Source: Oscillospiraceae bacterium
GTDB taxonomy: Bacteria; Bacillota; Clostridia; Oscillospirales; Acutalibacteraceae
DNA: 58,398 nt
Direction: 5' to 3'
Assembly: GCA_031271865.1 (NCBI GenBank)
Contig: JAISUW010000003.1
Coordinates: 1-58,398, forward strand
Part shown: piece by piece, positions 1,659 to 55,324 of the stretch
Position numbering within the stretch: position 1 is the first letter of the stretch
Layout: each line of letters opens with the position of its first letter
Made by a program: the position numbers and the translations under genes
Notes under the pieces: generated by a model
What the model saw: the letters and a program-made list of their open reading frames with translations, nothing else
What the model was told of the DNA's origin: nothing
Databases searched by the model: none

Positions 1659-5240
<3,582 letters not shown>

Positions 5241-5296
5241 GCTCCGTAACTCCGTTTCATAAATAAGATGGTGGGGAACTCGTCAGCGCATACGGC

Positions 5297-9223
<3,927 letters not shown>

Positions 9224-38130: not shown

Positions 38131-38197
38131 GGCAATGTACCTCCGGGTGATGTGGGTTGCGGCTTGTGCGGCCGCCTCTGCCCTTTTTGTATCTATA

Positions 38198-38203
38198 GTA
38201 TAC
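38198..38203 (-). promoter_or_regulatory. htrA promoter (extended -10)
   Basis: TATACT on the minus strand is preceded by TGG (extended -10) but no good -35 is present at 17 bp. Start is near 38191, leaving a ~60-nt leader to ATG 38130. A weak -35 suggests control by an activator or an alternative sigma factor. Confidence 0.55.
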
Positions 38204-38279
38204 CACGCAATTATGAAATCCGAATGTGCAGGATATGGATTGTTTATCAAATCAAGAGGCATGAGGCATGAAGCAAGAA

Positions 38280-38318
38280 AGAGGAACGAAGTCCCCGCAC
38301 CCTTTCGGGTGCGGGGAC
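38280..38318 (-). terminator. Terminator after the giant gene
   Basis: A perfect 12-bp stem, GTCCCCGCACCC (38291-38302) with GGGTGCGGGGAC (38307-38318), with a GAAA loop on the minus strand, followed by TTCGTTCCTCTTTCTT. It ends the transcript of the 16.8-kb gene. Confidence 0.85.
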
Positions 38319-38352: not shown

Positions 38353-41300
38353 TTAGCCAATCCAGCCGAAGAGGAAGTCCCAGACTCTGCCGAGCCACTC
38401 CCAGACGCTCATCCAGAAGCGTACCCAGCCGTTGGGTGCTACGCCGCTGGAGGGACTGGTGTCGTCACCGTTGGTGTTCTCATCGTCCCACAACTGGTCG
38501 ACCGCTTGCAGGTCTTCGTTGTCCTCTGCGTCGCCGCCGTTGAGGTCATCGTAGATTTGCTGGCGGGCGAGGTTGCCTTGGTACCAAGAGTCGTAGATGG
38601 CATCTACAGCACTGCTGCCTTGCATCCAACTCCAGTAGATGTTGGCGATGATTTGGTCTCTCGCCCAGTCACTCCAGAGCATGAGGTCAAGAATCCAGCC
38701 GATGAGGTTGCGTACGGTGTTGATGATGTCCGCCGGGGCTCCGAATTCAATGATGGCATCCAGTAAACCGTCGCGCATACTCTTCGTGCCCAGGAGGTCA
38801 AGGATGAGGCGCATGAATGCGGTAATCACATCGGCGCGGTCATCGACCGTCACGGTCAGGTAGTGGACATCGTAATCGGTGCCGTAGGTGTCGCCGCCGC
38901 CGGACGCGGATTCCTCGTGACGCAGGGTGCCGATGGCAATGCGGCGGAGGGCGGTGTAGCCGAGGCTGGTGTCGTTAAGGAGTCCGTGGACGATACCGTC
39001 GATGTCGATGTTCAGCATGTCGCCCAGACCGGCGCGTCCTGCAGTGAACCAGAGCGGATAGAGCAGGCGGCGGATGGACTGCTGCAGCGGGCTGGAGCTG
39101 TAGTCTGCCGGGTCAATCGGGTTGGTGTTCACGCCGCGGTTGTCGGCGAAGTAGACGATGTTCGGCAGGAGGGTGAGCAGTGTGTCGAATGGACGGTTGC
39201 AGAGGCGTTCCACCAAGCCGAAGATCGGGTTGAGGATTGCGTCGAGCATCCCTTGGCTGTCGCCTGCGGTGGCCATTGCATCGAATTCTTCCCAGCCGAC
39301 AACGAGATCGCCGTCGTTGAATGGCATGGTCAGCATTTCGAGAATCGGAATCAGGCCGTAGCGGTAGCCGTCGAAGCCGGTGGCGTAGATGAAGGCATCT
39401 TGCTCAACGACTGTGCCGTCCTCTTGGTAGTTGACGAAGTGGGCGGTGTTGTCGTAGCGCGTATTGTCCGCTGTGCCGTTTTCTGCGAGCGGGCGGTTGA
39501 CCTGGTCAAACGGGATGATCTCAAGGTCGCGTCCGGCGAGCAGGAAGCTCAAGAGCGGGACAACAGGTGCGAGCAGCGCGCTAAGGGCTTCGCGGAAGGA
39601 AGTGGAGTCATGAATCTCTGTGGCGGGTCCGTCTTCGATAATCTGGAGGATTTCTTCGAGGATGGCCTTGACGTCGAGTTCTTCGTTGCCGACCGTCACG
39701 GCACCGGCGAGAATGTCGTTGACAATGCGGTTGAGGGCAAAGTCTGCGTCGCCGAGGACTTCATCCAAGAGGGACATATCGAGGATGTCGAGGACGTTCT
39801 CCAGTACGGGCTTCAGGGCGTTGGTAATGGTGTTATAGAGGGTGCCGTCGTACAGGAAGCTGCCCACGAGTTCGGACAGAATGCCGGGGCTGACCGGTTC
39901 TCCGGGGACAATCGGTACGGAGCCGAGCGGCTTGCCGAAGAGGAGGATGCACAGCTGGTTGAAGAAGCGGTCGGCGTTGAGGGCAACGTACTCGGCCTGT
40001 TTCTCCGTCCAGAAGTTGTACGGATAGAGGTCAACCGGTTCTTGCGTGTTGACGGTCGGGTAGTAGACGTACTTGCACTCGAGTTCGACATAGTTCTCCG
40101 GCAGGAGGATGCCGAGGACGTACTTCAGGTCACCGTCAAGGATGCTCAGGACACCGAGTTCGTCAAGGAGGTTGGCGAGAATCTCAGGGATGTTGACATC
40201 CACATAGTAGGCCGCGTCTGCGAGTCCGCCGCTGCCCGGATAGTCAACATAGGCATCTTCATAGCGCTCCTCGCGGGTGTCGCGTCCGACTTCCCAGAGT
40301 CCGGCGGGTTCCCAGTTGCCCAACTGACCGATGATGAGGTCTTCGAGCTGAAGGACATCATCCGCCGTTGTCGGGTCACCGTCGCCCAGGACGGCTTGGA
40401 GAATCTCGTTCAGGAGGTCGCCGATGCGCAGGTCATTGATTTCGATGGTGCGGGAGACGCCCATGAGGTCGAGGCTGATGCCGCCGGTCAGGGACATAAT
40501 CACATCGTCGGCATCGCCCAAGGTGGCGACCACATCGAGGATATGCGTCACAGGGGTGAGGATGCGGTCCACTGCCTGCTGCAGGAGGCTCTTTTCGTTC
40601 TGCGAATTGCCGGAGGCAGCTGCGTCGCTGATGAAGTATGCAAGGTTCGGCAGAAGGTTCAGGATGGTCTGCAGCGGGTTCTCACAGATATTGGTGAGCA
40701 GGCACAGAATCGGGTTGGCGATGGCTTCGATGACCTTGCGGTTGTGGTCTTCGGTACCGGGGTTGGCGTTGAAGTCAGCCGGGGTCACGAGCGGGAACTG
40801 GTCATAGATGTTGTCGCCGTTGACATCCACGAATTCATCGCCTTGGATGCCGCCGACAAGAGCCATCAGGAGAGGCAGGAGTCCGCGTTCGTAGCCTTCG
40901 TTGCCGTAGAAGCGCAGGAAGCTCAGCGGTTCGGGCGTGACGTCGTCTGCGAATTCGTTGGAGATGAAGTCCACCTTGTCTTCGTCTTCCGCATCGGAGG
41001 TGCGGTCATCAATCGGGAGGTTGACAGTGGCTTCCGGCAGGATATAGAGGTTGTAGCCGGTGAAGAGGAAGTCGAGGACAGGTGCCAGCGGGTGCAGGAG
41101 GTTAATCAGTTCTTCCTCGAAGGCGGCCGGGTCGCCGGCAGGATCCTGAATCTGATAGGTGTCTATGGATTCGAGAATCTTGTTGAGGTTGAGCGGGGCG
41201 TACTCGGAGGCGCTGATTTCGCCGTCGCCGTCATAGTCGTCGCCGATATAGATGACATTCTGGACGACTTCTTCCAGCGTGACCCATTCTTGGTAGGTGA

Positions 41301-44300
41301 TATTGCCTTGGTCGTCTTTCTGCGTGATCTTGACTTTGAGACCATGGACCATCGGGATGACGGTGTCTTTGAAGATGTTTTGAATCAGTTCGAGGTTAGA
41401 TTTGGTGTACGCCACGGTACCGACGGCGTTCAGGAGCGTGTCTTCCAATGTGTCTTCGATAAGACCGTTCGGGAAGAGGCTGTCGAGTCCGAGGGCGGCT
41501 TCAAAGTCGGCTACCTTGTCATTCTCTGCGAAAATGCGGCTCCAGATGAACTCTATAATGAGGTCGATGTTGTCATAGAGGTACTGGGTCATTTCGGGCT
41601 TGAGGATGTCGTGGTTATATTCGGGTGCCGGGTCGGGTTCGGGCGCTTGGCCGTAGTCAATCTTCAGCGGAGCCGGCGGTTCCCAACCGTTGATGAGGTT
41701 GATGAGACCGCGAAGATCCAGACCGTCGAGGATGCCTGCCACGCCGCCCATGTTGCCGTTGAGGAACTCATCGACTTCGAGGCAATCCAAGATGTGCGCG
41801 AGGAGTTTGGCCGGATTGACGTTGACGTAGTTTGCCACGCCGCCGTAACCGACTTGCTGCTCGAGGGTGCGGGAGGAACCGGAGTTGTCTGTGCGGTTGA
41901 AGCGGGCGATGCTGTCAACGATGAGGTCTTTCAGCTGGAGACTGCCGCCGAAGTCACCGAAGATGGCCGTATCGCCGATCTTGATGCCCGGAATCAGGTC
42001 AGCCAAGAGGTCGTTGACGAAGTCGCCGATGCCGAGGTTGTCAATGTCCAGTGTGCCTTCGCCGGTGAGCGGGTTGGTGCCGAGGAGGGCTGCCACGATT
42101 TCGGGCAGGGTCCGGGCGGCTTCAATCTCTGCGCCGCTGCCGAGGAATGCGCCGAGACCTGCGCCTTCCGGATCTGCGGCACCGATGCCGTCCACGAGGA
42201 CGCGCACGGGATACAGGAGGTTATAGACCGCTTGCTGCAGGAGGCTCTGGTCGCCTGCTTTCGGGTTGGCGTCGTCAATGAAGTACACCACGTTCGGGAG
42301 CAGTTCAAGGATGGTTTGAATCGGGTCGGCTGCGATGGTGTTGACGAGGTAAATCAGCGGATCCACAATGGCGCGGACTTTCGCGGGCTTTTCGGCGGCG
42401 CGGTATTCGTCCGGCGTCAGGATGCCGGCATCCTCGTAGCCCATGTTCACGAGCATGAGGTAAATCGGCAGGAAGCCGTAGGCATAACCGTTGTTGCCGT
42501 GGATGCGCAGGAACTCGTCAATCGCTTCGCCGGGGCGGTCCATCGTATCGCCGGCGGTGCCTTGCGCACCTTGCGTTGCGGTCGGGTTGGGCTTGCGGAA
42601 CGTGACTTCGGGGGCTTCGTCCACATCGCTCGGGAAGAGGCGGATGTCATCGTTCATGAAGAGGAAGTCGAAGAGAGGCATTGCGCCGCTGATGAGGTCG
42701 GCAAGGATGGTCAGCGCGCCTTCTTCATCGAGTTCGCCGTTGGCATCGAGGACGGAGGAGAGGTCGGCTACATTGTTTGTCGAATCCCAGTACGCTTGGA
42801 ACGGAGCAATCACTTCGTCAAGGTCGAGCGGTTGGTCGCCGATGTAGACGATGAGCTTGAGGACTTCCGAAAGGGTAAGGAACGTGTCGGAAGCACCGCC
42901 GGTGTACTGGAAGTCCGCCGGGAGGGTGATGTCCGCAATTGTGCCCATGCCGAGCGACGACAGGTCAATGAGCAAGTGGCCGCTGCTGACATCGAAGCCG
43001 GAGGTCTGGAGAACCGGGACAATCTGCTGGTTGACAAGCGGCAGGAGGGTATTCTCAAGGAGGTTGCGGACCGGCTTGTCGTAAACGGTGGCAAGGGTCT
43101 TCTCGAGGGTTGGCTTAATGGTCACGAAGTCGCCCAAAAGGTTGGTGAGGAGCTCCTGTCCCTTCGGGTCTTCGTAAGCCTTGAGCCAGAGCCAATCCAG
43201 CACGGTGTCAAGGTTGTCGGTGAGGTAGGTGGAGAAGTTGGCGATGTTCGCCGCGCCCCAATCAGGCCATTGCTTTCCGGTGGCGAGGTCGGTGTTGCCG
43301 CCGTCGGAGGTCGGGTAATAGGCGCGGTAGTCAATCGTCAGCGGGACGATGTCGCCGTTGTGGCCCTGGTGGCTGTCGTCGGTTTCGTCTTCCCAGTTGT
43401 GCAGCAGGTAGGTGATACCTTGCAAGCCGTCCGGAATCTGGCTGTAGATGTTCAGGCAGTCCTCGGAGAGCAGGAAGTTGACGAGCGCGGGGATGTCGGT
43501 ATTAATGTAATACTCTTCATTCCGCTTGGCGCAATCGTAGTAGGGATCGAATTCCTCCACACGGCCGATGATGAAGCTGGCGAGTGTGACGGAGGACGGG
43601 AACAGACCGAGACCGGCGATGATGTCGTTGATCATGGTCTCGAGGTCGAGGTCGACCACGGTGTTGTAGAGGTCTACGATGGCGTTGTTGGAGGTATCCT
43701 TGATGGCTTCAAAGAGCGGCCATACGGGCGCCAACAGATTGTAGACGGCCTGCTTGGCGAGGGAGGCATCCTTCTGGTCAAGGCCTTGCGCGGCAGCAAT
43801 TGCCGGGTCGGCGGTCAGGAAGTATGCGACGTTCGGAATCAGCTCAAGCAGGGTGTCGACCGGGTCGGCGGCGAGTTTGTTGATGAAGTAGATAATCGGA
43901 TTGAGGATGCCGCTGGCCTTGAGCTTGTTCAGCTCGAGGTAACGGGCGGCGTAGGCGGCCTCGGAGACATTGGCGGGCTTCGATTCTATCTGGCGGGTGA
44001 ATTCCGCAACGGAAAGGATGCCGCATTCCGGATAGCCGCTGGTGAAGCGGTTGGCATCGTCGTTGACCAGCATGAGCAGAATCGGCAGGAGAGCGGATTC
44101 GTAGCCATTGGAGCCCCAGATGCGGAGGAACTCGCGCGGTTCGCCGGTGTCGGCACTCGGGTCGGTGTCAATGTCATCGTTATCGTCATTCGGGTTGGTG
44201 AAGTCGGCTTCGATGTCGCTGGTGGCGGGGTCGTCAGCCGGCGGTTCGGGCAGGAGGCGAAGCTCTGCGTTGGAGAGCAGGAAGTCAAGGATAGGCATGA

Positions 44301-47300
44301 TGGAGGCAAGGAGTTCCGTGAGCATATCGAGGGCTTCGTCTTCGGCCGTGCCGTTGCCGTTTTTGTCTGTCACGAACGGCTTGGTGGGGTCGTATTCGTA
44401 GGTGTCCGCCACGTCATCCGCTGTGCCGGCTACACCGTCCGGGCCGTCATTGCCGGGGGTGATGATATAGTGGTCGGCTGTATAAAGGGAAGTGAACTGG
44501 CTGATGACGTTGTTGAGGTCAATCTTGTGCTCGTTGACCCAGATGAAGTCGCCCACAAGGTCGGTGATGTCTAAGCCATCCGGACGGGTGTTCGAGCCGG
44601 TAATCAGATAGGCAGCAACACTGTTCAAGAGCGGGAGAGCGGTTTCGTTCATGAGCTTGACGACTGTGTTGAGGAGCATGACATTCACGCCGTCTTTCGC
44701 CCAAGCGGAGGACACGGTGTCTTCCAAGGTGGGCAGGACGTCGATGTAGTCACCGGCAATCTGCTCCAGCAAGCCTTTGGCTGCCGGATCGAGAGCGACT
44801 TTCTTCCAGACCCAATCGATGAGGACATCGATGTTGTCGGTGACGTACTCATGGTCTTTCTCTGTGAACCAAGCCGGGTAGTGCGGGGCGTTGACGTAGT
44901 CTTCATACGGGGAGACGGCGTCATCGTCGGCAGTTGCGGAGTACTGGTAGTCAATCTTGTTCTCCGGAATCTTGTCGGAGAAGTTGTGGAGGAAGTAGAC
45001 CAGACCTTGCAGGCCGTTGGCTTCTATCATGTCGTAAGCGCCGAAGGCTTTCAGGAGCTGCGACAGGACAAGGGCTTGGTCGACGTCGACATAGGTCGGT
45101 TTCCACTTCAGGTCGGCGAGCTTGTAATCTTCATCGAATACTTTTTCTGTTCCGATGATGAGGTCTTGGATGGTGAGGGCGTACTTCAGCGTGCCGCCCG
45201 GGAGACTGATGTCGGAGCCGAAGATGGTGATTGAGCCGCCGTCTTTCAGCGCCGCAAGCGCTGCGTCAAGCAGGTTGCCGACTGCGAAGTGGCCGTTGAT
45301 GATGCTGTCGACAATCGCCGCGCCGTCGCCGCCGACCATGTCGGTGAGGAGGTTACCGATGAACGGCATTTCCTTAATCATCACGAGGACGGGGGCGAGG
45401 AGGTTGGCACCGGCTTGCTCGAGCAGGCTCTTCTTGTACCAGTCTTTCTGGGTCTGATACTGGGAATCGGGATCGTTTTCCACAAGGAACGGATTGCCAA
45501 TCTTCGCATCGTAGGCAGCTTGATCTTGGAGGTACTTGTTGTAAGCTGCGAGGTCGGTGAGATACTGCGCATCGGATGTGCCGCCGGGGTACTTCGTAGC
45601 ATCGGTGGCATCCGGTTCGTCGACAGGAACCGGAGGCTGCAAATCCTCTTCGGTGAAGTTGCGGTCTTTGACGTCGCTCACAAAGTACGCGAGGTTCGGG
45701 ACGAGGTCGAGGATGAAGCTCACCGGGCTTGTGATGATTTCGTCGATGATGCCCAGCAGCGGCTGGAGGATGGCCTTGAAGCGGTTGGCCGGGTCGGCTT
45801 TGTAGTCGGCGGGGGTTACCACGTACTTGGAGGCATTCTTGTTCAGAAGCGCCATGTAGATGGGCATCAAGCCGTTGATGTAGCCTTCGCCGCCGTGGAC
45901 GGTCAGGAAGCCGTTGCAGGTTCTGGCCATGGACTCGAAGACCTTTAGAATGTTGTCTTCTTCATCATAGATCTGGTTGTTTTCGCTGTAGGTTGGATCC
46001 TTGGCCAAATCTTTCACGACGACATCATAGTACCAATTCTCCTGCGGGAAGACGAGGAGGTTCGCGCCGTTAAAGAGGAAGTCGAGGATGGGCATAATCG
46101 GCCCGATGAGGTCGGCGGTCGCGTTGAGGAAGTCCTCCTGCGCGTTGACCTTGGTGATGACGAACTCCTTGTAGTAGCCGGTAGGCATGATGATCGCGTT
46201 GCCTTGGTCGTCCGTATAGCCTGTATCGGTTGCCTGGTAGGTGGTGCCGCCATCGGATACGCCGTTCTTCGGGATGTAGACCGTGCCGTTATCCGATGAG
46301 GTCGGCTTGGTCACATAGAAGCCGAATTGACGGATGAGCTTGTCGACATCGAGGCGCTCCATGGTTTCAAATGTGCCGTCGCCGTCGGTGTCATACTGGA
46401 AGCCGAGGATAGCGGACGCCAGTTCGAGGATGCGGCGCTTGTCAAGCATCTTGGCGGCGTTTTCGCCGAAGAGCTCCGCGAGGTCAAGCCCGATGAGGGT
46501 CTTGAGGTCGCCGAAGGTCAGCGTGGCGATGGTGCGGGACTCATCCGCCGCCGTGTTCGGGTCGTCTTCGATGATGTTGCTAGCCAGCAAGCCGTTGACA
46601 ATGGTCGCGATGTACGCGAGGTTGTCGGCCTTGTAAAGCGTGGCGCCGAGCATGGCGGAGATGGTCTCCTCCATGGTGCCCTTCATCTCAAAGGTGAGAC
46701 CGAGCTGCGGAACCGCGTCGGTGAGAAGGTCGTTGACGAAGCCTTCTACGCCGAGGCGCAGGGCATTCATGCCGCGGTCTTCCTGGTTGAAGATGGCGCC
46801 CCAGATCCAGTCGATGATGGTATCGGCGTTGTCGGTGATATACTGGAGGTCATAGTGCTGAATCCACGAGGGGTAGCTGACCGGGTTCAGGATAGATGCG
46901 GCCGGGTCGCTCGAGCTGTCATACCGCGTGCGGTCTATCGGATTTATGACATCCGGTGCCTGCTCGTAGTTGATGGGGAACATATCGATCGGGCCGTTGG
47001 TAATCAGGTAGGTCAGACCGCCCATGCCGGTTTCGTCGAGCCACTTCGTCAGACCGATCTGGTGCAGGAGTTGCATCAGGACATCGGCCTTGTCTGCCTT
47101 GACGTAGTAGTGATAATCGCATGTCGTTGCAGAGTTGGTGGCACCGAGTTGTCCGTCAGCTGGTTTGGTGGTAGTGATATACTTGCCGAGAATCAGTTCC
47201 CTGAGATTGATTTCCGGTACGATGTAAGCACCGAGAATCTGGCTGTTGAGGGCGTTTTGCAGCATCGGGTTGACTTGCTCGTCAATGATCTGCTCGACGT

Positions 47301-50300
47301 TAATCTTCACGCCTTCCTCAAGGCTGATGGTGATGGCACCGCCGAGGAGTTTCAAGGTGTCCGGATCCGGACCCAACGGGTCATTTGCCATGGAGGGTAC
47401 AAACTCAGTCAGGATGTCATTGAGGCCAATCACTTTCGTGCCCGCCTTATCGTAGAGCAGCGGACGGATGGTGTCAATCAGGACATAGAGCGGCTCAAGG
47501 AGGGCATCCAATGCATCCTGCAGCGGACTGTCCCCTTCGTAGACATCATCGTTTGGGTCATTCGGTGTGCTTCCGCCAGACGCGAGCGGTGTGCTCACAA
47601 AGAATGCCAGTTCGGGGATTAGTTGCAGCAAGGTGGAGAAGATCGCCGTGCTGTCCTCGCGGATGAGCATGGTGCGCAGGGAGGTCGGTCCGAGCAGCGG
47701 ATTCAAGACGGCTTCCCACATCTTCGCATAGTCATCGGCGGTTGGGTTGGTAACACTAAATGCAGTGGAAGCGAGTGCAGTATCCGCCGTTGGGTCGCTG
47801 GCAGTCAGGAGCGGGGCAAGCAAGGCATTGTAGATCGGCAGCAAGCCGTTGTTATACCCTTCGTAGCTGTAGATGCCGAAGAGGGAACCGTAATTTGCTT
47901 CCGGACCTTTGTGCAGCTTATATGGGTCAATGGTAGTTGCAGTACCGGTCGGACCAACGGTTGATTTATTGGTCTTCAGCGGAATGAGCGAGAGGTTTGA
48001 GCCGCCCATCAGGAACTGGAGAATCGGGCCGGCGGGCGCCAAGAGTTTGCACGCTGCCGCAATGAGGGCGGATATGTCCGCGAAGTTAACATAGTCGGTC
48101 GCAGGGGCATCCGGGTCGGGCCGCGACCACTGCGCAAGACCTATGGGGCTCGGGACCGGAGTAGGTGCGGCAATCGGAGATTCTGTATCAACGATGTAAT
48201 CACCATGGTAGTGTGCGCCGATTTGCTGGTTGATGGCGACAATCAGCTGCGAGATGATGTCGACGACATCTATGCCCTTGCCGCCGATGAGCACCAATTC
48301 TTTGACGAGGGCAAAGATGGTCTGCATCGTGCTCGGCTCATTCGGGTCGAAGTCTTTGGTGAGATCCAGCAGCATATTGCGCAGCATAATCAGCAGGTCA
48401 ACGTAGGTGTCGCCCGCGAGCAGCTTCTCGGTCAGGAACCAGTTCAGCCAAGCATTGACGCTTGTGTCGCCGATGGCCGTACCGTTTTCATAGGTCGAGG
48501 AAGTATCGACATCCGGGTACCATCCCAGCGTGCCGCCCACGTTCGGCGTATAGCCAAAGATGGAGAGCCACAGGTTGTTAATCAGGGGGTCAAGGTTCTC
48601 GGAGAGGTAAATCGCGTCTTGCCGCGCCCCTTCGCTGTCGTCATGCCACCAGGACGGATAGTAGGTGTGCACGGTCGGGAGCGCAGCGGGGTAATCCACC
48701 GGCTGCTCTTTGTACTTCTTCGGTTCGGTCAGCTCCGCCAGTACCGGCACGAGGTTCTCTGCCGACAGATTGTCGAGGAGCTTAGTGATAACCGTTACTT
48801 CATAATTCTTATCCTCGCCGTTCTTCGGCGCAATCATACCGGCAACGAAATCCAGCAAGCTCTTCAGGACATCCGGCTTGTCTGCGTCGATGTAAATACG
48901 GTCTGCCGTATAGGGCCGGCGGGTGTCAATGTAAGCCAAACCCGTCGCCCTGTTCGTCAGCATGACACCGGAGGTCGTGATGTCATTGAGCAAATCCATC
49001 GGTAACGAATCCGCCAAATCGCCCATGCCGAGCAGCTCGCTGCGCAGAATGCCCTCAATGCCGCCGTTGAGGAAGCCCAGTGTTCCGTTCGGCGCGGTGA
49101 GGTCGCCCAAGATGCCCTGCACAATGTGCGGTTTGCCTTTGTGGAGGAGGGGATCTTCGCCCTTCAATCCGCTGCCGATGTCGCCGAGCAGGTCGCTGAC
49201 ATCAAGAATATTCAAATCATCCAGAAGGTCTGTTATCTTATTAATGGAGACAGAAAGGTTCGTAATTGACCCGTCTTGTTTGGCATCATCGTTCGTATTC
49301 AATCCGGCTTCTACGTCAACGTTCAGGTCGACTTTGGAAAGCAGCGGCAGAATGCGGTTGGCGTTGAGTGCCGTCACCAGGTTCGGAATCAGGTTGATAA
49401 TCTCGGTCACAGGCGCTTCCTTCAGCTTGGAAAGGAATGCCTCAATCGGTCCGAAGATAGCCTTCACAGCAGCCGTACCGCCATTATAGCCCCATGCACC
49501 GCCGTCATACAACGGTGTTGCAGGATTATCCGCAAGGTTTGTGGCATTGGCACGGAAAGCAGCATCTTTGCCCGCAAACTCCCGGCTTTGATCGGGTGTG
49601 CCTTGGGTGGGCGAACCTCCGGCTGTTAAATACTCTGCTACATCGCCGCCGTCCACGCGGAAGGCTGTAAGCCTGATTCCTTTCGAGGAAAACTCACCTG
49701 TAGCCGCTGTCGCCATGGACGGAATGGACTCCACATCCTTGCCCAAGAGAGCCTCAAATATAGGTGTCAGAATCCCTTGATAAGCTGCAATGGAACGGTC
49801 GTCTGTATCGAACTTCAGGCGCATGGTCAGGATGGCTTGGCTTTTGCCGCTGTAGTCGAAACCCAAGCCCCAGATTGTGAGCGGAACCCCTGCAAAGATA
49901 ATAGATGCCGTCAGACCTGCCATCCAGGCTGTGAAATTATCAAATATATTCGTACCGAGCAAACTCCCGAGCAAATCACCGAGGCTGATGTTAATCGTCC
50001 CGACCCAGTCATTCCCGAGCCAGCCGCTGTCCTCACCAAAGAGGATGGTATTCAGCGCGGGCATCAAACCGGAGAACGCGGAACCCATGGCCGCATAGAA
50101 GCGGTCGCGCTTTTCGATGGGGTCAATCACGTCGTCAATGCCCCAAGGCAGGTAGAACGCTTCGCCCGAATCAATCGTGCCGTTCAAGTCGTTGTCGCAG
50201 AAGTACTCGGATCCCCACACGGCATCGACTCTACTTACGCCGCCGGCTTTCAGAGTGAACCCATTGCCGCCTTTCGCATGGAGCTTGTTGTAATTTCCCC

Positions 50301-53300
50301 ATTCGAAATCCGTGTACATGAAAGATGTCCAAGCCATGTAGTTGCCGAGCTTAGCATAGACCTCCGGGAACGTATCCCGGTCAATTTTCTTTGCCAGTAA
50401 ATCTGGGTAGAGCGCCACGGCGGAAGCCGGGTTATCCATTAAATTCCAGGGCTTGTCGCCGCCACTACCCCAACTAATGCCCGTATCCCCGCGGAAGCCG
50501 GTTTTGGTGTCAAAGGGGTTGTGCCCGGTCGCATCCGGGTCGAGGATGTTGTGCAGGGAGTACAGTCCGGCATCCAAACCGGGCATATTGCCGATCATGT
50601 CGTTGATATCAATGTTCAGCTCGTTCTCAAACTGCTCCGCAATCATCGGATACGCCGCGCTGATAATCATGTTAATCAAGCTGTCGGAGTAGAGCATCCC
50701 CGCGAGGGCCTGATCCAAAACGGTCGCGATATTGACAACCTGCTCGCCGGCGAGCGTCGCCGGGGTAAGGAGCTTCTTCAGGTCAAGGCTGCCGCCGCTC
50801 TGCATACCAATCATGGAAAGGAAGCTGTCCACGCCGCCCATGCTCTGAATCAGCGGGTAGAGGTTGCCGTCGCGCCCGATGAGCACGTCAATCTTCGTGA
50901 TGAGCTGTGTCAAAACTTGGTCCGTGTCGGTCATGGGCTCGCCGTCGCCCATATTCGGTGGGTTGACGCCGTCCGGGTCGGTGCCGGGGTAGCGGTATTG
51001 TTCGGAGTTGGTGCTAGCTTGCGCAGTACCATCACCGGGCGAAACCGGGTCATTGTTATCATCATCAATCGTCAGCGTGTTATTCCAAGCATCATTCGCC
51101 TCGTCGAGGATATCATCCTCCATCCAAGCCCGCGGATAGGGCGGCTGGTCTTTCTGCTGATAGTACACCTGCGGGTTCTGCATAAAGTTGACATACAGCG
51201 GCTCGGCGCGCTCCACGATATACATATAGTAATAACGTGCATCCGAAATGGTCAGTGGGGTCTTGCCGGCGTTGCTGTCGTCATCCGTATAATTTGTATT
51301 GCCATACACCCCGAACAGTTCCCACGGGATTTTGGTCGGGTCGCCTGTCGCTGTACCGAAAAGCGGATCTTTACCCTCTTGCAGCAGCGGCTGCAGCAAG
51401 GAGGAGTTCTTCTCGGAAATACCCTTGCTCAGGTTCCCGAACGAAGCCCAATCGGGGATGATTTCATAGTATCCGGTTGGAGTGTATACCCACCCGCCGT
51501 TATAGGCGTCGCCGTCATATTTTTTACTAATGTCAGTCCAGCTCGGTTCCTGAATGGGACGGTCAACTCCGTTATTCGTATCGATACTCTTCCCCACATC
51601 TGCGCCGGCAGTAATCACATCATCCTCAAAGTCAGAGATATAAGCCTGCGCACTACTATCGCTGCCGACCAAGCGATCGACATAGGCGTTGAAGATGAGG
51701 CCCATAATCTTCATGTAGGCCGGCTGGGCAACATCCGTCTCAAATTCGCCGAAGATTTCATCCCAGTAGGTCTTGCCCGTCCCTAAAGTCGGAGAGGTTT
51801 GGTTCAGCTTGCTTACATAGCTTAACGCCAAAGCGCGATACTCCGTGAGCTTCGTCCGGAAGTCATTGTACATCGAAACGAGCGTAGAGGGACTCGTTAC
51901 ATTGCTGTAGTCGGCGTCGAGGATCCCGAAGAAGTAGTCGCGGTAGGCTTGCCACTTCACTTCGGCATCCGTGCGGTAGGTCTTCTCTGTGTTCAAACGG
52001 GTGAGCAATGCCTGCATCGAGTTATAGGTAATAGTATCCCCAATAATTGTATCGCGTTCTGACTGAGTCAACCCGCTGAACGCACTGTTCGCCGACTGCA
52101 AGGTAGAAATCAAGAGCATTAAGTCTTCCGTCGTCAACTGCCCGCTCTCCTGCACGGGGTAGCTGTCGTTGGCGGTGTTGATCGGTTCGGTTTTATAGTG
52201 GTCCACCCAGGTGGTGGTTACCGTGCTGGGATCGACACCATAGGAAGCCGGCATACTGGAAGTACCGTTCTCCCAAGCAGTGTATAATTGTGTACCCAAA
52301 TACGTGGTCACCGCACGCACTGCAGTTGGGTCTGTTGTTCCGACAGAAGTCGTCACCCAATCCGTTGCGTCAATGCTGTCTCGGTCCGTATAGGGGACAT
52401 AGCCTCCGCCGCCGGTCCCGACACCATAAGTCATGTTGCCCGCCTCGGAAACCAACGAACCCGTCGCGTCATACTGCGTCACCTGCGACCAGCTCTCATA
52501 GGCTGTATACGCCTCCGATACGTGCGTAAAAGCATACACCGCCGACGAAGTCCGCTCCGTAGACGCCTGCCCGCCGTAGCCGTAGGCATTGGTGCTTGGT
52601 CTCGAACCGTAGTTGCCGTTGCCGTACTCGGCACTGACGCCCGTCGCATCCGCACCTAAAGCGTACACAACGCTTGTTGTCGGGCTCCCATCCAAAACTA
52701 TAGAACTGGAGATTGGCACATCCGATGTGTAGTTAGTCCAATCGGCATTCGATGAATACCCGGTAGGTGTCGATACGTACGGATAAACATACGATGTCGT
52801 TCCGTTGTTTTGAGTTACATAGAACTGCGGTGCGGCATTCACATTATCATTGGCACCCAAGTGCTCCATAATTGTCGGCACGCTCGCCACGCGCAGCAGC
52901 GCATCGGCCGCATCATGCGCGCGCCACAGGTCAATGACCCGCTTGACATAGGCGATGTGGGTGCGGATGTAGGCCAGAGCTATCTCTTGGTCGCCATTGG
53001 CCGTTGTCCCAGTTAATCCGACGGTTAATTTGGTATAATAAGTCGGGCTGCTACTGGACCCTACAACGGAGGGGAAATTGAACACCCCGTCATTATCCAC
53101 ACGCACATACTTCCAAGCGCCATTCCAGTTCTCGATATCCTCTCGAACACCGTTAGAAGGAGTCGCAGTGTCATACGGCACACGCGAAACCAGCCCGCTC
53201 AGCCGCGTATTCAACTCATTATAATACGCCTGCAAAGAAGCCAAGCCCTTAGCGGAAGTGCCGTACTGGAAGTTATAGTACTGGCTCTCATCAAAAGCTG

Positions 53301-55122
53301 TTGTGCTCTTGTCGTCAAAGGGGTTGTTGGGGTTGAACTCGGCTTTCAGAATACCTGTTGCGTCTTCCGGAGCATTCGCGTTGCTGAAGAAAATCTGGTT
53401 GGCGGTCTTCTGCAGCTGCCCGGAAACATTCCCGCCGGTCAGCCCGGAGCCGTCGTTGGTGTCTTCGTCGTCCAAGAAGTAACGCCAATCCGAGATGATT
53501 TGGCTCTGCAGGAGTTCGGCTTTCCTTGCCAGCTCCATCTGGAGGTCTCTCGCGGATGTAATCGGCGGGTTGGTGTTTGTCAGCGAATACTGCACTTGAT
53601 CCGCGTCGCTTTCCAGCGGCAGCATCCCATACCACGCCAGCACCTTATTAACGGTTTCGCGGCTCGCGAAATTCAGGATGGACCCGGTCGCGGCGTAGAC
53701 GTTCGCATTCGATGCAGAGCCGTTAATTGCTGTGTAGTCGCCGGCAACATAGTTCAGTGCCGCTTCCCACTTCTTATACTCCGCCAAGGTGGTGAAGGGG
53801 TAGTTATTAACGGAAACCGTCCCCACACCGTTCGAGCCCACGGCCTTATGACCGGGGTATGTAGTCCCGTTGGCGTCCCCGCCGTTCATATAGAGCTTCA
53901 GCGCATTAATCGTAGCGGTGATGTCCTCTGTACGGTTCCCGGCAGTCAGATTGCTGTAGGCCGCACTCTCACCGGTGAGTTTGGAAACACCGGTCAGCTG
54001 GTGCGCCACCGCGCGGTAGACATCCCGCACTTCATACATCCCAAAAATGCCCGTGCCGCAGGGGTCTGCACCGCTGGCCTCTTCCATGGACCAGCCTTGC
54101 AGTTCGTTGGAGTTGACAATCTTGTGCGACCAATCCATCTCCAGCACCAAGTCGACTCTACTATTGACTTGGTTGATGTCCTGCGTGCCGCTCATCAGGG
54201 CGTCGAGCGCCGTACGCGTAACGGCGAATGTACCGGCGTACGGATGGAACCCGCCGAGATAGCCTTCTTCGTGGTGGTCGACCGTGATATTGTTGTCGAC
54301 TTCCTTGAGCCACTTCATGATGGTCGGCGTCTCAAGGATGGCGGCACTCCCGCTGACGCTCGTGCTTGTTGTGTTATGAAAGTGGACGCTATCATAGTCC
54401 CCTGGCGCCCCGCCGCTGGTGTAAGCTGAAGCAGGGTTGCCGGTGCCGGTACTGACACTGGCACCCGCCGTTGCCCCGGAAATGAAGTAGTTCACAACCG
54501 CAAGCTCAGCATCCGTCAGCGTAACGCCGCCGGGTTGTGCAGCTTGTTCTTCCAGACCCTGCTTAATCGTGGCGGCAATGCGCGTAATGGTATTGTGCTT
54601 GGGGTCTTTCGCCGTCGAGCTCGTGAAGTTGTACTGCCCCAAAGCCGTACCTTTCGTTGTCAGCTGGTACCCAATCGGGTAAAACGCCGAAGACCCGCCC
54701 CCGATATTGATGGAGCTGGGCCAGAGGATTTGGTCATTGAAGAACAGCGTCATGGCAACGGTAATGAACTTATCGAATGCATTCCACACGTTGGCACCCG
54801 CACCGTCCGTGCGGCCGCTGCCGTTGAAATACCCGCGGGAATACACCGCGCTCCCATAGTCGCCGATGTTCGCACGGATGGCCTGATCATAGGTATTCGC
54901 CGGCCATGACGTGCCCATGCTATTGACATTGGTCGTGAACTCAATCGCCGTAATATCCATCGCTCTGATGGCATTCGCCAACTCAATGTAGTTGCTCGTG
55001 AGGTCCGGTGCAGCCGAGGAGTTCATAACCATCCCGGCGGGGATAAGCCCCACAAGCATGGCGAACGCCAAAAGCACACTGAGTGCGCGCAAGCTGAACG
55101 GCCGTTTTGTATGTTTCTCCAT
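38353..55122 (-). CDS. Giant secreted repeat protein (5589 aa)
   Basis: One uninterrupted frame of 16.8 kb. ATG 55122 has AAAGGAG 7 nt upstream; an in-frame ATG at 55251 with GAAAGGG is a weaker alternative. The N-terminus is a Sec signal peptide (MEKHTKRPF, then LRALSVLLAFAMLVGLIPAG, cleavage near SSAA). Residues ~40-1500 are Ser/Thr/Asn/Tyr-rich and match nothing I know. From ~1500 to 5500 the protein consists of about seven divergent repeats of ~490-640 residues. No LPxTG, SLH, choline-binding or cell-wall motif is seen. The C-terminus is Trp-rich and amphipathic (WVRFWMSVWEWLGRVWDF). Few Cys occur. It has its own promoter and terminator. The function is unknown; a surface or extracellular structural role is inferred only from the signal peptide, size and repeats. 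Confidence 0.9.
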   Translation of the reverse strand: MEKHTKRPFSLRALSVLLAFAMLVGLIPAGMVMNSSAAPDLTSNYIELANAIRAMDITAIEFTTNVNSMGTSWPANTYDQAIRANIGDYGSAVYSRGYFNGSGRTDGAGANVWNAFDKFITVAMTLFFNDQILWPSSINIGGGSSAFYPIGYQLTTKGTALGQYNFTSSTAKDPKHNTITRIAATIKQGLEEQAAQPGGVTLTDAELAVVNYFISGATAGASVSTGTGNPASAYTSGGAPGDYDSVHFHNTTSTSVSGSAAILETPTIMKWLKEVDNNITVDHHEEGYLGGFHPYAGTFAVTRTALDALMSGTQDINQVNSRVDLVLEMDWSHKIVNSNELQGWSMEEASGADPCGTGIFGMYEVRDVYRAVAHQLTGVSKLTGESAAYSNLTAGNRTEDITATINALKLYMNGGDANGTTYPGHKAVGSNGVGTVSVNNYPFTTLAEYKKWEAALNYVAGDYTAINGSASNANVYAATGSILNFASRETVNKVLAWYGMLPLESDADQVQYSLTNTNPPITSARDLQMELARKAELLQSQIISDWRYFLDDEDTNDGSGLTGGNVSGQLQKTANQIFFSNANAPEDATGILKAEFNPNNPFDDKSTTAFDESQYYNFQYGTSAKGLASLQAYYNELNTRLSGLVSRVPYDTATPSNGVREDIENWNGAWKYVRVDNDGVFNFPSVVGSSSSPTYYTKLTVGLTGTTANGDQEIALAYIRTHIAYVKRVIDLWRAHDAADALLRVASVPTIMEHLGANDNVNAAPQFYVTQNNGTTSYVYPYVSTPTGYSSNADWTNYTSDVPISSSIVLDGSPTTSVVYALGADATGVSAEYGNGNYGSRPSTNAYGYGGQASTERTSSAVYAFTHVSEAYTAYESWSQVTQYDATGSLVSEAGNMTYGVGTGGGGYVPYTDRDSIDATDWVTTSVGTTDPTAVRAVTTYLGTQLYTAWENGTSSMPASYGVDPSTVTTTWVDHYKTEPINTANDSYPVQESGQLTTEDLMLLISTLQSANSAFSGLTQSERDTIIGDTITYNSMQALLTRLNTEKTYRTDAEVKWQAYRDYFFGILDADYSNVTSPSTLVSMYNDFRTKLTEYRALALSYVSKLNQTSPTLGTGKTYWDEIFGEFETDVAQPAYMKIMGLIFNAYVDRLVGSDSSAQAYISDFEDDVITAGADVGKSIDTNNGVDRPIQEPSWTDISKKYDGDAYNGGWVYTPTGYYEIIPDWASFGNLSKGISEKNSSLLQPLLQEGKDPLFGTATGDPTKIPWELFGVYGNTNYTDDDSNAGKTPLTISDARYYYMYIVERAEPLYVNFMQNPQVYYQQKDQPPYPRAWMEDDILDEANDAWNNTLTIDDDNNDPVSPGDGTAQASTNSEQYRYPGTDPDGVNPPNMGDGEPMTDTDQVLTQLITKIDVLIGRDGNLYPLIQSMGGVDSFLSMIGMQSGGSLDLKKLLTPATLAGEQVVNIATVLDQALAGMLYSDSLINMIISAAYPMIAEQFENELNIDINDMIGNMPGLDAGLYSLHNILDPDATGHNPFDTKTGFRGDTGISWGSGGDKPWNLMDNPASAVALYPDLLAKKIDRDTFPEVYAKLGNYMAWTSFMYTDFEWGNYNKLHAKGGNGFTLKAGGVSRVDAVWGSEYFCDNDLNGTIDSGEAFYLPWGIDDVIDPIEKRDRFYAAMGSAFSGLMPALNTILFGEDSGWLGNDWVGTINISLGDLLGSLLGTNIFDNFTAWMAGLTASIIFAGVPLTIWGLGFDYSGKSQAILTMRLKFDTDDRSIAAYQGILTPIFEALLGKDVESIPSMATAATGEFSSKGIRLTAFRVDGGDVAEYLTAGGSPTQGTPDQSREFAGKDAAFRANATNLADNPATPLYDGGAWGYNGGTAAVKAIFGPIEAFLSKLKEAPVTEIINLIPNLVTALNANRILPLLSKVDLNVDVEAGLNTNDDAKQDGSITNLSVSINKITDLLDDLNILDVSDLLGDIGSGLKGEDPLLHKGKPHIVQGILGDLTAPNGTLGFLNGGIEGILRSELLGMGDLADSLPMDLLNDITTSGVMLTNRATGLAYIDTRRPYTADRIYIDADKPDVLKSLLDFVAGMIAPKNGEDKNYEVTVITKLLDNLSAENLVPVLAELTEPKKYKEQPVDYPAALPTVHTYYPSWWHDDSEGARQDAIYLSENLDPLINNLWLSIFGYTPNVGGTLGWYPDVDTSSTYENGTAIGDTSVNAWLNWFLTEKLLAGDTYVDLLIMLRNMLLDLTKDFDPNEPSTMQTIFALVKELVLIGGKGIDVVDIISQLIVAINQQIGAHYHGDYIVDTESPIAAPTPVPSPIGLAQWSRPDPDAPATDYVNFADISALIAAACKLLAPAGPILQFLMGGSNLSLIPLKTNKSTVGPTGTATTIDPYKLHKGPEANYGSLFGIYSYEGYNNGLLPIYNALLAPLLTASDPTADTALASTAFSVTNPTADDYAKMWEAVLNPLLGPTSLRTMLIREDSTAIFSTLLQLIPELAFFVSTPLASGGSTPNDPNDDVYEGDSPLQDALDALLEPLYVLIDTIRPLLYDKAGTKVIGLNDILTEFVPSMANDPLGPDPDTLKLLGGAITISLEEGVKINVEQIIDEQVNPMLQNALNSQILGAYIVPEINLRELILGKYITTTKPADGQLGATNSATTCDYHYYVKADKADVLMQLLHQIGLTKWLDETGMGGLTYLITNGPIDMFPINYEQAPDVINPIDRTRYDSSSDPAASILNPVSYPSWIQHYDLQYITDNADTIIDWIWGAIFNQEDRGMNALRLGVEGFVNDLLTDAVPQLGLTFEMKGTMEETISAMLGATLYKADNLAYIATIVNGLLASNIIEDDPNTAADESRTIATLTFGDLKTLIGLDLAELFGENAAKMLDKRRILELASAILGFQYDTDGDGTFETMERLDVDKLIRQFGFYVTKPTSSDNGTVYIPKNGVSDGGTTYQATDTGYTDDQGNAIIMPTGYYKEFVITKVNAQEDFLNATADLIGPIMPILDFLFNGANLLVFPQENWYYDVVVKDLAKDPTYSENNQIYDEEDNILKVFESMARTCNGFLTVHGGEGYINGLMPIYMALLNKNASKYVVTPADYKADPANRFKAILQPLLGIIDEIITSPVSFILDLVPNLAYFVSDVKDRNFTEEDLQPPVPVDEPDATDATKYPGGTSDAQYLTDLAAYNKYLQDQAAYDAKIGNPFLVENDPDSQYQTQKDWYKKSLLEQAGANLLAPVLVMIKEMPFIGNLLTDMVGGDGAAIVDSIINGHFAVGNLLDAALAALKDGGSITIFGSDISLPGGTLKYALTIQDLIIGTEKVFDEDYKLADLKWKPTYVDVDQALVLSQLLKAFGAYDMIEANGLQGLVYFLHNFSDKIPENKIDYQYSATADDDAVSPYEDYVNAPHYPAWFTEKDHEYVTDNIDVLIDWVWKKVALDPAAKGLLEQIAGDYIDVLPTLEDTVSSAWAKDGVNVMLLNTVVKLMNETALPLLNSVAAYLITGSNTRPDGLDITDLVGDFIWVNEHKIDLNNVISQFTSLYTADHYIITPGNDGPDGVAGTADDVADTYEYDPTKPFVTDKNGNGTAEDEALDMLTELLASIMPILDFLLSNAELRLLPEPPADDPATSDIEADFTNPNDDNDDIDTDPSADTGEPREFLRIWGSNGYESALLPILLMLVNDDANRFTSGYPECGILSVAEFTRQIESKPANVSEAAYAARYLELNKLKASGILNPIIYFINKLAADPVDTLLELIPNVAYFLTADPAIAAAQGLDQKDASLAKQAVYNLLAPVWPLFEAIKDTSNNAIVDLYNTVVDLDLETMINDIIAGLGLFPSSVTLASFIIGRVEEFDPYYDCAKRNEEYYINTDIPALVNFLLSEDCLNIYSQIPDGLQGITYLLHNWEDETDDSHQGHNGDIVPLTIDYRAYYPTSDGGNTDLATGKQWPDWGAANIANFSTYLTDNLDTVLDWLWLKAYEDPKGQELLTNLLGDFVTIKPTLEKTLATVYDKPVRNLLENTLLPLVNQQIVPVLQTSGFDVSSGHLLIDLSSLGMGTIADITLPADFQYTGGASDTFLTLSEVLKLIVYIGDQPLDLDEVIAPFQAYWDSTNNVADLSSVLDANGELDEEGALTILADLISGAMPLFDFLFMNDDIRLFPSDVDEAPEVTFRKPNPTATQGAQGTAGDTMDRPGEAIDEFLRIHGNNGYAYGFLPIYLMLVNMGYEDAGILTPDEYRAAEKPAKVRAIVDPLIYLVNTIAADPIQTILELLPNVVYFIDDANPKAGDQSLLQQAVYNLLYPVRVLVDGIGAADPEGAGLGAFLGSGAEIEAARTLPEIVAALLGTNPLTGEGTLDIDNLGIGDFVNDLLADLIPGIKIGDTAIFGDFGGSLQLKDLIVDSIARFNRTDNSGSSRTLEQQVGYGGVANYVNVNPAKLLAHILDCLEVDEFLNGNMGGVAGILDGLDLRGLINLINGWEPPAPLKIDYGQAPEPDPAPEYNHDILKPEMTQYLYDNIDLIIEFIWSRIFAENDKVADFEAALGLDSLFPNGLIEDTLEDTLLNAVGTVAYTKSNLELIQNIFKDTVIPMVHGLKVKITQKDDQGNITYQEWVTLEEVVQNVIYIGDDYDGDGEISASEYAPLNLNKILESIDTYQIQDPAGDPAAFEEELINLLHPLAPVLDFLFTGYNLYILPEATVNLPIDDRTSDAEDEDKVDFISNEFADDVTPEPLSFLRFYGNEGYERGLLPLLMALVGGIQGDEFVDVNGDNIYDQFPLVTPADFNANPGTEDHNRKVIEAIANPILCLLTNICENPLQTILNLLPNLAYFISDAAASGNSQNEKSLLQQAVDRILTPVTHILDVVATLGDADDVIMSLTGGISLDLMGVSRTIEINDLRIGDLLNEILQAVLGDGDPTTADDVLQLEDLIIGQLGNWEPAGLWEVGRDTREERYEDAYVDYPGSGGLADAAYYVDVNIPEILANLLDELGVLSILDGDLKYVLGILLPENYVELECKYVYYPTVNTQEPVDLYPYNFWTEKQAEYVALNADRFFNQLCILLFGKPLGSVPIVPGEPVSPGILSELVGSFLYDGTLYNTITNALKPVLENVLDILDMSLLDEVLGDADFALNRIVNDILAGAVTVGNEELDVKAILEEILQIIEDGPATEIHDSTSFREALSALLAPVVPLLSFLLAGRDLEIIPFDQVNRPLAENGTADNTRYDNTAHFVNYQEDGTVVEQDAFIYATGFDGYRYGLIPILEMLTMPFNDGDLVVGWEEFDAMATAGDSQGMLDAILNPIFGLVERLCNRPFDTLLTLLPNIVYFADNRGVNTNPIDPADYSSSPLQQSIRRLLYPLWFTAGRAGLGDMLNIDIDGIVHGLLNDTSLGYTALRRIAIGTLRHEESASGGGDTYGTDYDVHYLTVTVDDRADVITAFMRLILDLLGTKSMRDGLLDAIIEFGAPADIINTVRNLIGWILDLMLWSDWARDQIIANIYWSWMQGSSAVDAIYDSWYQGNLARQQIYDDLNGGDAEDNEDLQAVDQLWDDENTNGDDTSPSSGVAPNGWVRFWMSVWEWLGRVWDFLFGWIG
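38900..49450 (-). repeat. Seven divergent protein repeats in the giant gene
   Basis: Each unit contains, in order, a DxxxVLxxLL...GLxGLxYLL segment, YPxWxxxxxxYxTDNxDxLIDWxW, a PIMPxLDFLLxNxxLxLLP segment, GNxGYxxGLLPIxLMLVN, and the best anchor, NPxxxLxxxxxxDPxxTILELLPNxxYFxSD followed by SLLQQAVYNLLxPV. The anchor recurs near 49385 (degenerate), 47605, 45690, 43825, 42285, 40640 and 39150, i.e. residues about 1913, 2506, 3145, 3766, 4280, 4828 and 5325. Spacing is 497-639 residues. The units differ at many residues at DNA and protein level, so duplication is old. Confidence 0.82.
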
Positions 55123-55295
55123 TTGCTTCTCCTTTCGGTTTCCCGCGGAAATTGGGTTGCCGTTTTGGTCTTTCTGATGTGATGGGGGTCCGAGAATGCC
55201 GTTTGGAAGCCGCCCGGTTGCAGCTTCCGCACTATGTATTGCACGCTTCATTTGATACACCCTTTCAAGACTATGCTATGATACTTCTACTATCC

Positions 55296-55324
55296 ATTTT
55301 AAAACAATTCCCTAAAAAAGTCAA
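55296..55324 (-). promoter_or_regulatory. Giant gene promoter
   Basis: On the minus strand TTGACT (55324-55319), 17 bp, TAAAAT (55301-55296). Start near 55289 gives a leader of about 167 nt before ATG 55122. Confidence 0.8.

What the first reader, a model, noticed from the sequence alone, without database searches (positions are those of the whole stretch)
38353..55122. Giant secreted protein of 5589 residues built from an unrecognised ~500-640 residue repeat
A single intact frame of 16.8 kb takes up over a quarter of the window and has a signal peptide, promoter and terminator. Its repeats, anchored by TILELLPNxxYF, PIMPxLDFLL and TDNxDxLIDWxW, do not match any domain I can name. They alternate amphipathic Leu-rich helices with Asp/Asn/Pro loops, which suggests a new modular fold. 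Preserving 5.6 kb of codons free of stops implies strong selection.
Basis: partly seen in the sequence, partly recalled or inferred. Interest (0 to 1): 0.85.

Follow-up and report, generated by a model that had tools for sequence, protein, structure and literature searches.

The report
Giant modular secreted stalk-like protein family
A gut-type Clostridia bacterium carries a real 5,589-residue secreted protein built from seven copies of a protein unit found in no library searched, most likely an extendable surface stalk held to the cell by an unusual aromatic tail.

Summary
No credible match in Pfam, NCBIfam, PHROGs or PDB sequences. The own genome has two more giants. 46 of 300 genomes of the same bacterial family carry the unit (open frames to 10,643 aa); of 299 phylum genomes only the own one does.

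New here: (1) Units cluster by position. First, second, next-to-last and last units match between proteins; middle units vary in number (0 to at least 4), as in a length-tunable stalk. (2) Many giants, not all, end in a ~30-residue amphipathic aromatic tail. It also ends eight unrelated signal-peptide proteins (CotH, papain-lectin, esterase, Ig-like, CHAP, three unknown), so it may be an undescribed surface-retention signal. (3) Short relatives with a transmembrane anchor sit directly before a MacB/FtsX-type ABC transporter at 15 of 16 loci holding that transporter; the sixteenth is cut by its contig.

Best reading: secreted, envelope-tethered, helical stalk with a protein-specific N-terminal tip. 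Stalk shape, adhesion and tail function are inferred. The fold is unsettled: one low-confidence model; a second prediction failed.

The parts
38353..55122 (-). giant gene, 5,589 codons plus stop (protein P0001)
   Evidence: codon usage
55129..55135 (-). ribosome-binding-site-like AAAGGAG, 6 bases before the ATG
   Evidence: sequence read
55296..55324 (-). promoter-like TTGACT-17-TAAAAT; not above chance
55009..55122 (-). signal-peptide-like start, residues 1-38 (end approximate)
   Evidence: hydrophobic stretch 14-32; sequence reading
51310..55008 (-). protein-specific N-terminal region, residues 39-1271; no similarity to the other ORFs over 1,000 aa of the loci compared at 1e-4
   Evidence: first similarity starts at residue 1272
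49792..51309 (-). pre-repeat region shared with other giants, residues 1272-1777
   Evidence: 21-50% identity to seven other long ORFs
48244..49791 (-). unit 1 (residues 1778-2293), 'first' class
   Evidence: E 6e-55
46495..48051 (-). unit 2 (2358-2876), 'second' class
44491..46116 (-). unit 3 (3003-3544), middle class
42793..44322 (-). unit 4 (3601-4110), middle class
41161..42705 (-). unit 5 (4140-4654), middle class
39649..41109 (-). unit 6 (4672-5158), next-to-last class
38746..39579 (-). unit 7 (5182-5459), last class, matches profile positions 3-227 of 353
38356..38457 (-). C-terminal aromatic amphipathic tail (residues 5556-5589)
   Evidence: 56% identical in the paralogue's tail; tail profile; hydrophobic moment
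38291..38318 (-). 12-bp hairpin after the stop; listed by the scan for the plus strand, moderately T-rich after it on the minus strand

Best explanation
A secreted, envelope-tethered, length-adjustable surface stalk. The signal peptide exports the chain (sequence reading). The C-terminal aromatic amphipathic helix stays with the cell envelope, probably in the outer leaflet of the membrane (inferred). Four fixed 'cap' units (first, second, next-to-last, last) frame a middle that grows by internal duplication of units (shown by tree for giants of the genus), so the chain projects the protein-specific N-terminal region (residues 39-1271) away from the cell, where it would bind a partner such as host tissue, particles, protists or other bacteria (inferred). 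Short relatives with a transmembrane anchor, paired with a MacB/FtsX-type ABC transporter, suggest that the unit began as an envelope-associated extracytoplasmic module (inferred).
For: Intact coding frame. Seven units, controls clean. The nearest unit in another protein has the same position class for 40 of 41 units; in 2,000 label shuffles the mean is 9.0 and the maximum 22. Clade supports: second 1.0 (8 proteins), last 1.0 (5), next-to-last 0.98 (6), first 0.81-0.84 (the 0.81 clade also holds one unit of another genus). Middle units number 0 to at least 4. N-terminal region not shared at 1e-4, pre-repeat and repeat regions shared. Tail 0-4 residues before the stop in 23 of 30 examined matches; 8 of the 23 are on proteins that start with a signal-peptide-like stretch and have no unit over their whole length, 5 of the 8 with known domains. 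Tail and units co-occur: 10 of 17 unit genomes against 3 of 83 others, p 2.6e-7; without the four genomes that gave profile members, 6 of 13 against 3 of 83, p 1.3e-4. Very acidic (net -470) with 14 Cys.
Against: No adhesive or known stalk domain is recognised. Nothing here shows surface location; the tail could oligomerise instead. The structure model is low-confidence and does not show a rod. Not all giants have the tail: four of 13 other ends seen and the G022 protein lack it, and giants of G009, G010 and G012 end in looser hydrophobic helices. Seven of 30 tail matches are not at the C-terminus. One tail resembles phenol-soluble modulins, which are secreted, not anchoring. A sortase gene is present in the own genome, so the standard anchoring route exists but is not used here. 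Hydropathy also flags two stretches inside the repeats (3834-3852, 5179-5197). Similarity of N-terminal regions below BLAST's reach cannot be excluded.
Confidence: 0.5

Rival explanations
1. Extracytoplasmic partner of type VII (MacB/FtsX) ABC machinery: the unit binds lipid, peptide or cell-wall components and is worked by mechanotransmission; giants are enlarged versions with the same job.
For: Of 16 close homologues of one ~920-aa ABC_tran+FtsX protein (query included), 14 have a short unit protein directly upstream on the same strand by profile hit (12 by coordinates; 2 by ORF scan), one more by reading its C-terminal piece at the contig end (G458), one cannot be judged; six genera. TetR or MarR regulators in four of the six such neighbourhoods read. 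Type VII transporters do work in the extracytoplasmic space (PMC5985334, passages seen).
Against: The window giant is not beside such a transporter: neighbours are an HtrA-like protease and an oxidoreductase. The own homologue of the ABC (57% identity over query residues 1-419) sits by an M23 peptidase, with no unit ORF in the 19 kb read. The query ABC was chosen because it was adjacent. A short member without this ABC within 12 kb exists (L093).
Confidence: 0.25
2. Freely secreted matrix, coat or S-layer-like material rather than a tethered stalk; the tail drives self-assembly.
For: The aromatic heptad-like tail could pack into bundles; several giants per genome in some genomes; no cell-wall anchor domain found.
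Against: A protein-specific N-terminal region and position-specific units are unusual for a lattice protein (inference); the tail is shared with enzymes and a CotH-domain protein, which points to localisation.
Confidence: 0.15
3. Antagonism or predation effector delivered to other cells.
For: Giant size and secretion; protein-specific N-terminus.
Against: No toxin domain in Pfam or NCBIfam scans; padloc was not searched; the variable part is N-terminal, and the two immediate neighbours have ordinary domains.
Confidence: 0.05
4. Assembly artefact or chance open frame.
For: The genome is a 70-contig draft.
Against: Codon usage, controls, paralogues and relatives in many separate assemblies.
Confidence: 0.01

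Closest known systems
Fibrillar adhesins (PMC8286594, passages seen)
   Same: Long exported protein, repeated units towards the C-terminus, variable part at the N-terminus, unit number varies; the paper says that nearly half of its fibrillar-adhesin-like proteins lack a known anchor
   Different: No known adhesive or stalk domain; units are spaced 510-645 residues and look helical in one low-confidence model; the end is an aromatic tail, not LPXTG or SLH
Giant1-5 of Apilactobacillus kunkeei (PMC12863079, abstract and outline seen)
   Same: 3,000-8,000-residue extracellular proteins of an insect-associated Gram-positive, several per genome
   Different: Giant1-4 are predicted to have N-terminal beta-solenoids; no such match was found here
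MacB/FtsX (type VII) ABC systems (PMC5985334, passages seen)
   Same: Short unit proteins are membrane-anchored and encoded next to such a transporter
   Different: The window giant is not; the unit matches no Pfam model
Phenol-soluble modulins (NCBIfam PSM_epsilo)
   Same: Short amphipathic helix; one of 12 tails matches at E 5.7e-4
   Different: Here it is the end of large signal-peptide proteins, not a free peptide

Membership tests
Fibrillar adhesin | export signal and C-terminal stalk of repeated domains | tested here: met
   repeats; export by hydrophobic start (reading); that the repeats form a stalk is inferred
Fibrillar adhesin | recognised adhesive domain at the distal end | tested here: not met
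   Pfam: no family up to E 1 in residues 1-1200; N-terminal region protein-specific and of unknown fold
Fibrillar adhesin | surface location and binding | not testable with these tools
   needs experiment
Sortase-anchored (LPXTG) surface protein | C-terminal LPXTG, hydrophobic stretch, basic tail | tested here: not met
   no LPXTG-like motif after residue 4354 and best hydropathy of the last 60 residues 0.57; a sortase gene is present in the genome
S-layer-homology, dockerin or other wall-binding repeat protein | the corresponding Pfam domain | tested here: not met
   EF-hand_5 only at E 0.13, below cut-off
Type VII ABC partner (short relatives) | gene adjacency to an ABC_tran+FtsX gene | tested here: met
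   14 of 16 loci by profile hit, one more by reading, one undecidable; short relatives only, and not all of them (L093)
Type VII ABC partner (window giant) | gene adjacency to an ABC_tran+FtsX gene | tested here: not met
   neighbours are an HtrA-like protease and a GFO_IDH_MocA oxidoreductase
Any family with solved structure | sequence or fold match | tested here: inconclusive
   profile hits only to designed or coiled-coil-type helical chains; Foldseek on a low-confidence model, no match at E<=0.001

The most novel reading that the evidence does not exclude
A whole bacterial family uses a previously undescribed C-terminal aromatic amphipathic tail as a general surface-retention signal, and its main users are extendable all-helical giant stalks built from a new domain family that evolved from the extracytoplasmic partner of a MacB/FtsX-type ABC machine.
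Probability: 0.3. Interest if true: 0.8.

Novelty: new variant of a known kind. Interest (0 to 1): 0.62.

Why it matters
It adds a domain family that none of the libraries searched here holds (Pfam, NCBIfam, PHROGs, PDB sequences) and that recurs in 46 of 300 genomes of one Clostridia family. It shows a clean case of repeats lengthening by middle-unit duplication between fixed caps. It also offers a concrete, testable candidate for a missing anchor: a published survey found no known anchor in nearly half of its fibrillar-adhesin-like proteins (PMC8286594, passage seen).

Tried and rejected
Chance frame or artefact: rejected. Viral origin: one viral-contig scan with A1, using a single peptide pattern, confirmed no relative among 55 pattern matches; PHROGs none for the four pieces scanned. 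Weak Pfam hits (Glyco_transf_8C, Anticodon_2, EF-hand_5 and others, all below cut-off) were taken as noise: each of the ten families matched one of 25 diverse units. The PDB profile hit 8qad (E 2.4e-4) is a designed coiled coil and is absent with the more diverse profile. Operon with the HtrA-like gene: a hairpin lies between them and the flanks scanned at two other giants differ (List_Bact_rpt protein, ABC exporters), so it was not pursued. The 20 Foldseek matches all have E above 1 and were dropped. Paper searches (PubMed Central subset; rows listed only) for the tail letters and for giant proteins, anchors and surface proteins showed no paper describing this family or tail; passages of PMC11573180 on huge proteins named none of it. 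Tail matches that do not fit: of 30 examined, 7 are not at the C-terminus (two 13 residues before the stop, three near the N-terminus of 301-331-aa ORFs, two elsewhere inside); one of 31 was not examined.

Full report
What is there. The window holds one 5,589-codon gene on the minus strand, 55122 to 38353. The plus strand of the same stretch has stops. Codon usage matches that of seven other window genes (r 0.92, other frames 0.24-0.66). The protein starts with a signal-peptide-like stretch, is very acidic (net -470) and has 14 cysteines; hydropathy also flags 3834-3852 and 5179-5197. The gene sits among ordinary chromosomal genes: FtsZ, DNA polymerase I, PrmA, a histidine kinase, an HtrA-like protease downstream and an oxidoreductase upstream (ten window ORFs scanned).

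The repeat. Fragment self-BLAST shows pairs of 22-36% identity. Starting from five units, an iterated profile finds 64 units in 14 of the 119 ORFs of at least 250 aa examined (118 from 13 fetched loci plus P0001; three of the 14 are pieces of one G016 gene), and none in 238 reversed or shuffled versions. P0001 has seven. No Pfam, NCBIfam or PHROGs model matches at E<=0.001 or above its cut-off (relatives), and no solved structure credibly matches by sequence (the one hit below 0.001 is a designed coiled coil).

Distribution. The own genome (2.40 Mb, 93.8% complete) has two more giants: P0002 (3,138 aa) and P0003 (open frame at least 3,893 aa, running off its contig). With a 1,274-aa query, 14 of 40 genomes match, own included: 10 of 14 of the genus, 4 of 11 of other genera of the family, 0 of 15 of other families. 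With profile A5, 46 of 300 genomes of the family (21 of 135 genera) match, six of them contributors to the profile, with open frames up to 10,643 aa; of 299 phylum genomes only the own one matches. With profile A4, 3 of 295 order genomes match; the only one outside the family is a 75% complete genome, on a 3,352-base contig, so contamination is possible. Named relatives from one genome-contig scan are two MAGs: Oscillospiraceae Cf509_bin60 and Bacillota Co191P4bin15. A paper on termite guts lists another bin of sample Co191P4 (PMC7886697, abstract start in a listing and one passage seen), so that relative is probably from a termite hindgut (inference). No call names the window's own source or its family.

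Position-specific units. In a FastTree of the 64 units the first, second, next-to-last and last units of different giants form their own clades, while middle units form lineage-specific groups. For the 41 units of eight giants of the genus, the nearest unit in another protein has the same position class in 40 cases (2,000 shuffles: mean 9.0, maximum 22). For three proteins whose ends were not in the loci used (G000c, G011, G009b) late units were labelled 'middle'; the tree had been seen before labels were written. P0002 and the G012 protein have no middle units; P0001 has three, P0003 at least four by their place in the tree. The G016 giant (9,406 aa open frame) mixes two unit types in rough alternation. 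Fixed caps with a growing middle is the pattern expected of a spacer.

N-terminal part. Similarity to other ORFs over 1,000 aa in the loci compared starts only at residue 1272 (blastp 1e-4). Residues 39-1271 are thus protein-specific at that sensitivity.

The tail. P0001 and P0002 end in similar aromatic tails (56% identical); P0003's end is not on its contig. Elsewhere, of 14 giant ends fetched, nine carry variants of the pattern FFxKIxxFFxxIxxFFKxLF, four (G169, G336, G511, G435) end differently and one is cut by its contig. The G022 protein lacks it, and giants of G009, G010 and G012 end in looser hydrophobic helices. Searching six genomes, the tail profile matched 31 places; 30 were examined. 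In 23 the match ends 0-4 residues before the stop: 15 on unit proteins (several are members of the profile) and 8 on others. The 8 have no unit over their full length (0 of 8 at E<=10) and a hydrophobic stretch of about 2.1 or more near the start (signal peptide by my reading). Five have known domains: CotH; papain with lectin-like and Big_2; SASA esterase; Big_2 with DUF285 and List_Bact repeats; CHAP. Three have none. Seven matches are elsewhere in the ORF. In 100 family genomes 13 have a tail match at E<=1e-4 (positions in the ORF were not checked there); in 196 class genomes 3, two of these from one other genus on ORFs of 284-291 aa. Tail and units go together: 10 of 17 against 3 of 83 (Fisher p 2.6e-7), or 6 of 13 against 3 of 83 without the profile's own genomes (p 1.3e-4); genomes not listed as matches were counted as lacking units. 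Six tails tested have hydrophobic moments within the top 1% of 18-residue windows of P0001; the P0001 tail is not a transmembrane helix by hydropathy. Sortase genes are present in 13 of 13 genomes tested, own included, so the tail does not replace a missing sortase.

Short relatives and the ABC transporter. Seven short members (826-1,073 aa) each have two units, the second matching only the first two thirds of the profile; six also have a unit fragment at the N-terminus; all seven have a C-terminal hydrophobic helix (2.35 or more). In six of the seven a ~920-aa protein with ABC_tran and FtsX domains lies directly after them; the seventh (L093) has no such protein within 12 kb. In 50 genomes the search found 16 close homologues of one such ABC (at least 52% identity, query included): 14 are adjacent to a unit protein on the same strand by profile hit, one (G458) follows the C-terminal piece of a short member that I recognise by reading, one starts at its contig's end. 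The 12 weaker rows were not followed except the own one (two rows, C51), which lies beside an M23 peptidase and has no unit ORF in the 19 kb read. The query was picked for being adjacent, so the result holds for that subfamily alone. Four of six neighbourhoods read carry a TetR or MarR regulator.

Structure. One AlphaFold2 job on 731 residues with 15 sequences gave mean pLDDT 62.9, mostly helices with a few short strands, 321 residues at 70-90. Foldseek against PDB gave nothing at E<=0.001. A better-framed job was interrupted and could not be repeated.

Interpretation. Shown: real gene, unit family absent from these libraries, spread within one family in the samples searched (one doubtful exception), position-specific units, shared tail, adjacency of short members to a type VII-like ABC. 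Inferred: surface location, tail as anchor, stalk, N-terminal binding tip. I put the stalk reading at 0.5 and the ABC-machine reading at 0.25.

Noticed in passing
L094-L097, L101, L102 (G530, G355, G354, G372, G016, G568): Conserved pair: transmembrane-anchored unit protein followed by a ~920-aa fused ABC_tran+FtsX transporter, in four of the six with a TetR or MarR regulator
   Followed up: partly
L132, L133, L135, L136, L138, L141, L142, L146: The same C-terminal aromatic tail on eight signal-peptide-type proteins without the repeat unit
   Followed up: partly
L140, L144, L145: Tail-like amphipathic segment near the N-terminus of 301-331-aa ORFs that read like alpha/beta hydrolases (my reading, no family scan)
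   Followed up: no
L100:8812-13275: Own-genome homologue of the ABC_tran+FtsX protein lies next to an M23 peptidase, as FtsEX-type systems work with wall hydrolases (recalled)
   Followed up: no
window 36475-38262 (-): HtrA-like protease (Trypsin_2 plus PDZ) directly downstream of the giant gene
   Followed up: partly
L013:3-3629 (-): 1,209-aa ORF (open at the contig end) with seven List_Bact_rpt stretches directly downstream of the paralogous giant P0002
   Followed up: no
L034, L043, L044 (G016:C13): 9,406-aa open frame in which two types of the unit roughly alternate
   Followed up: partly
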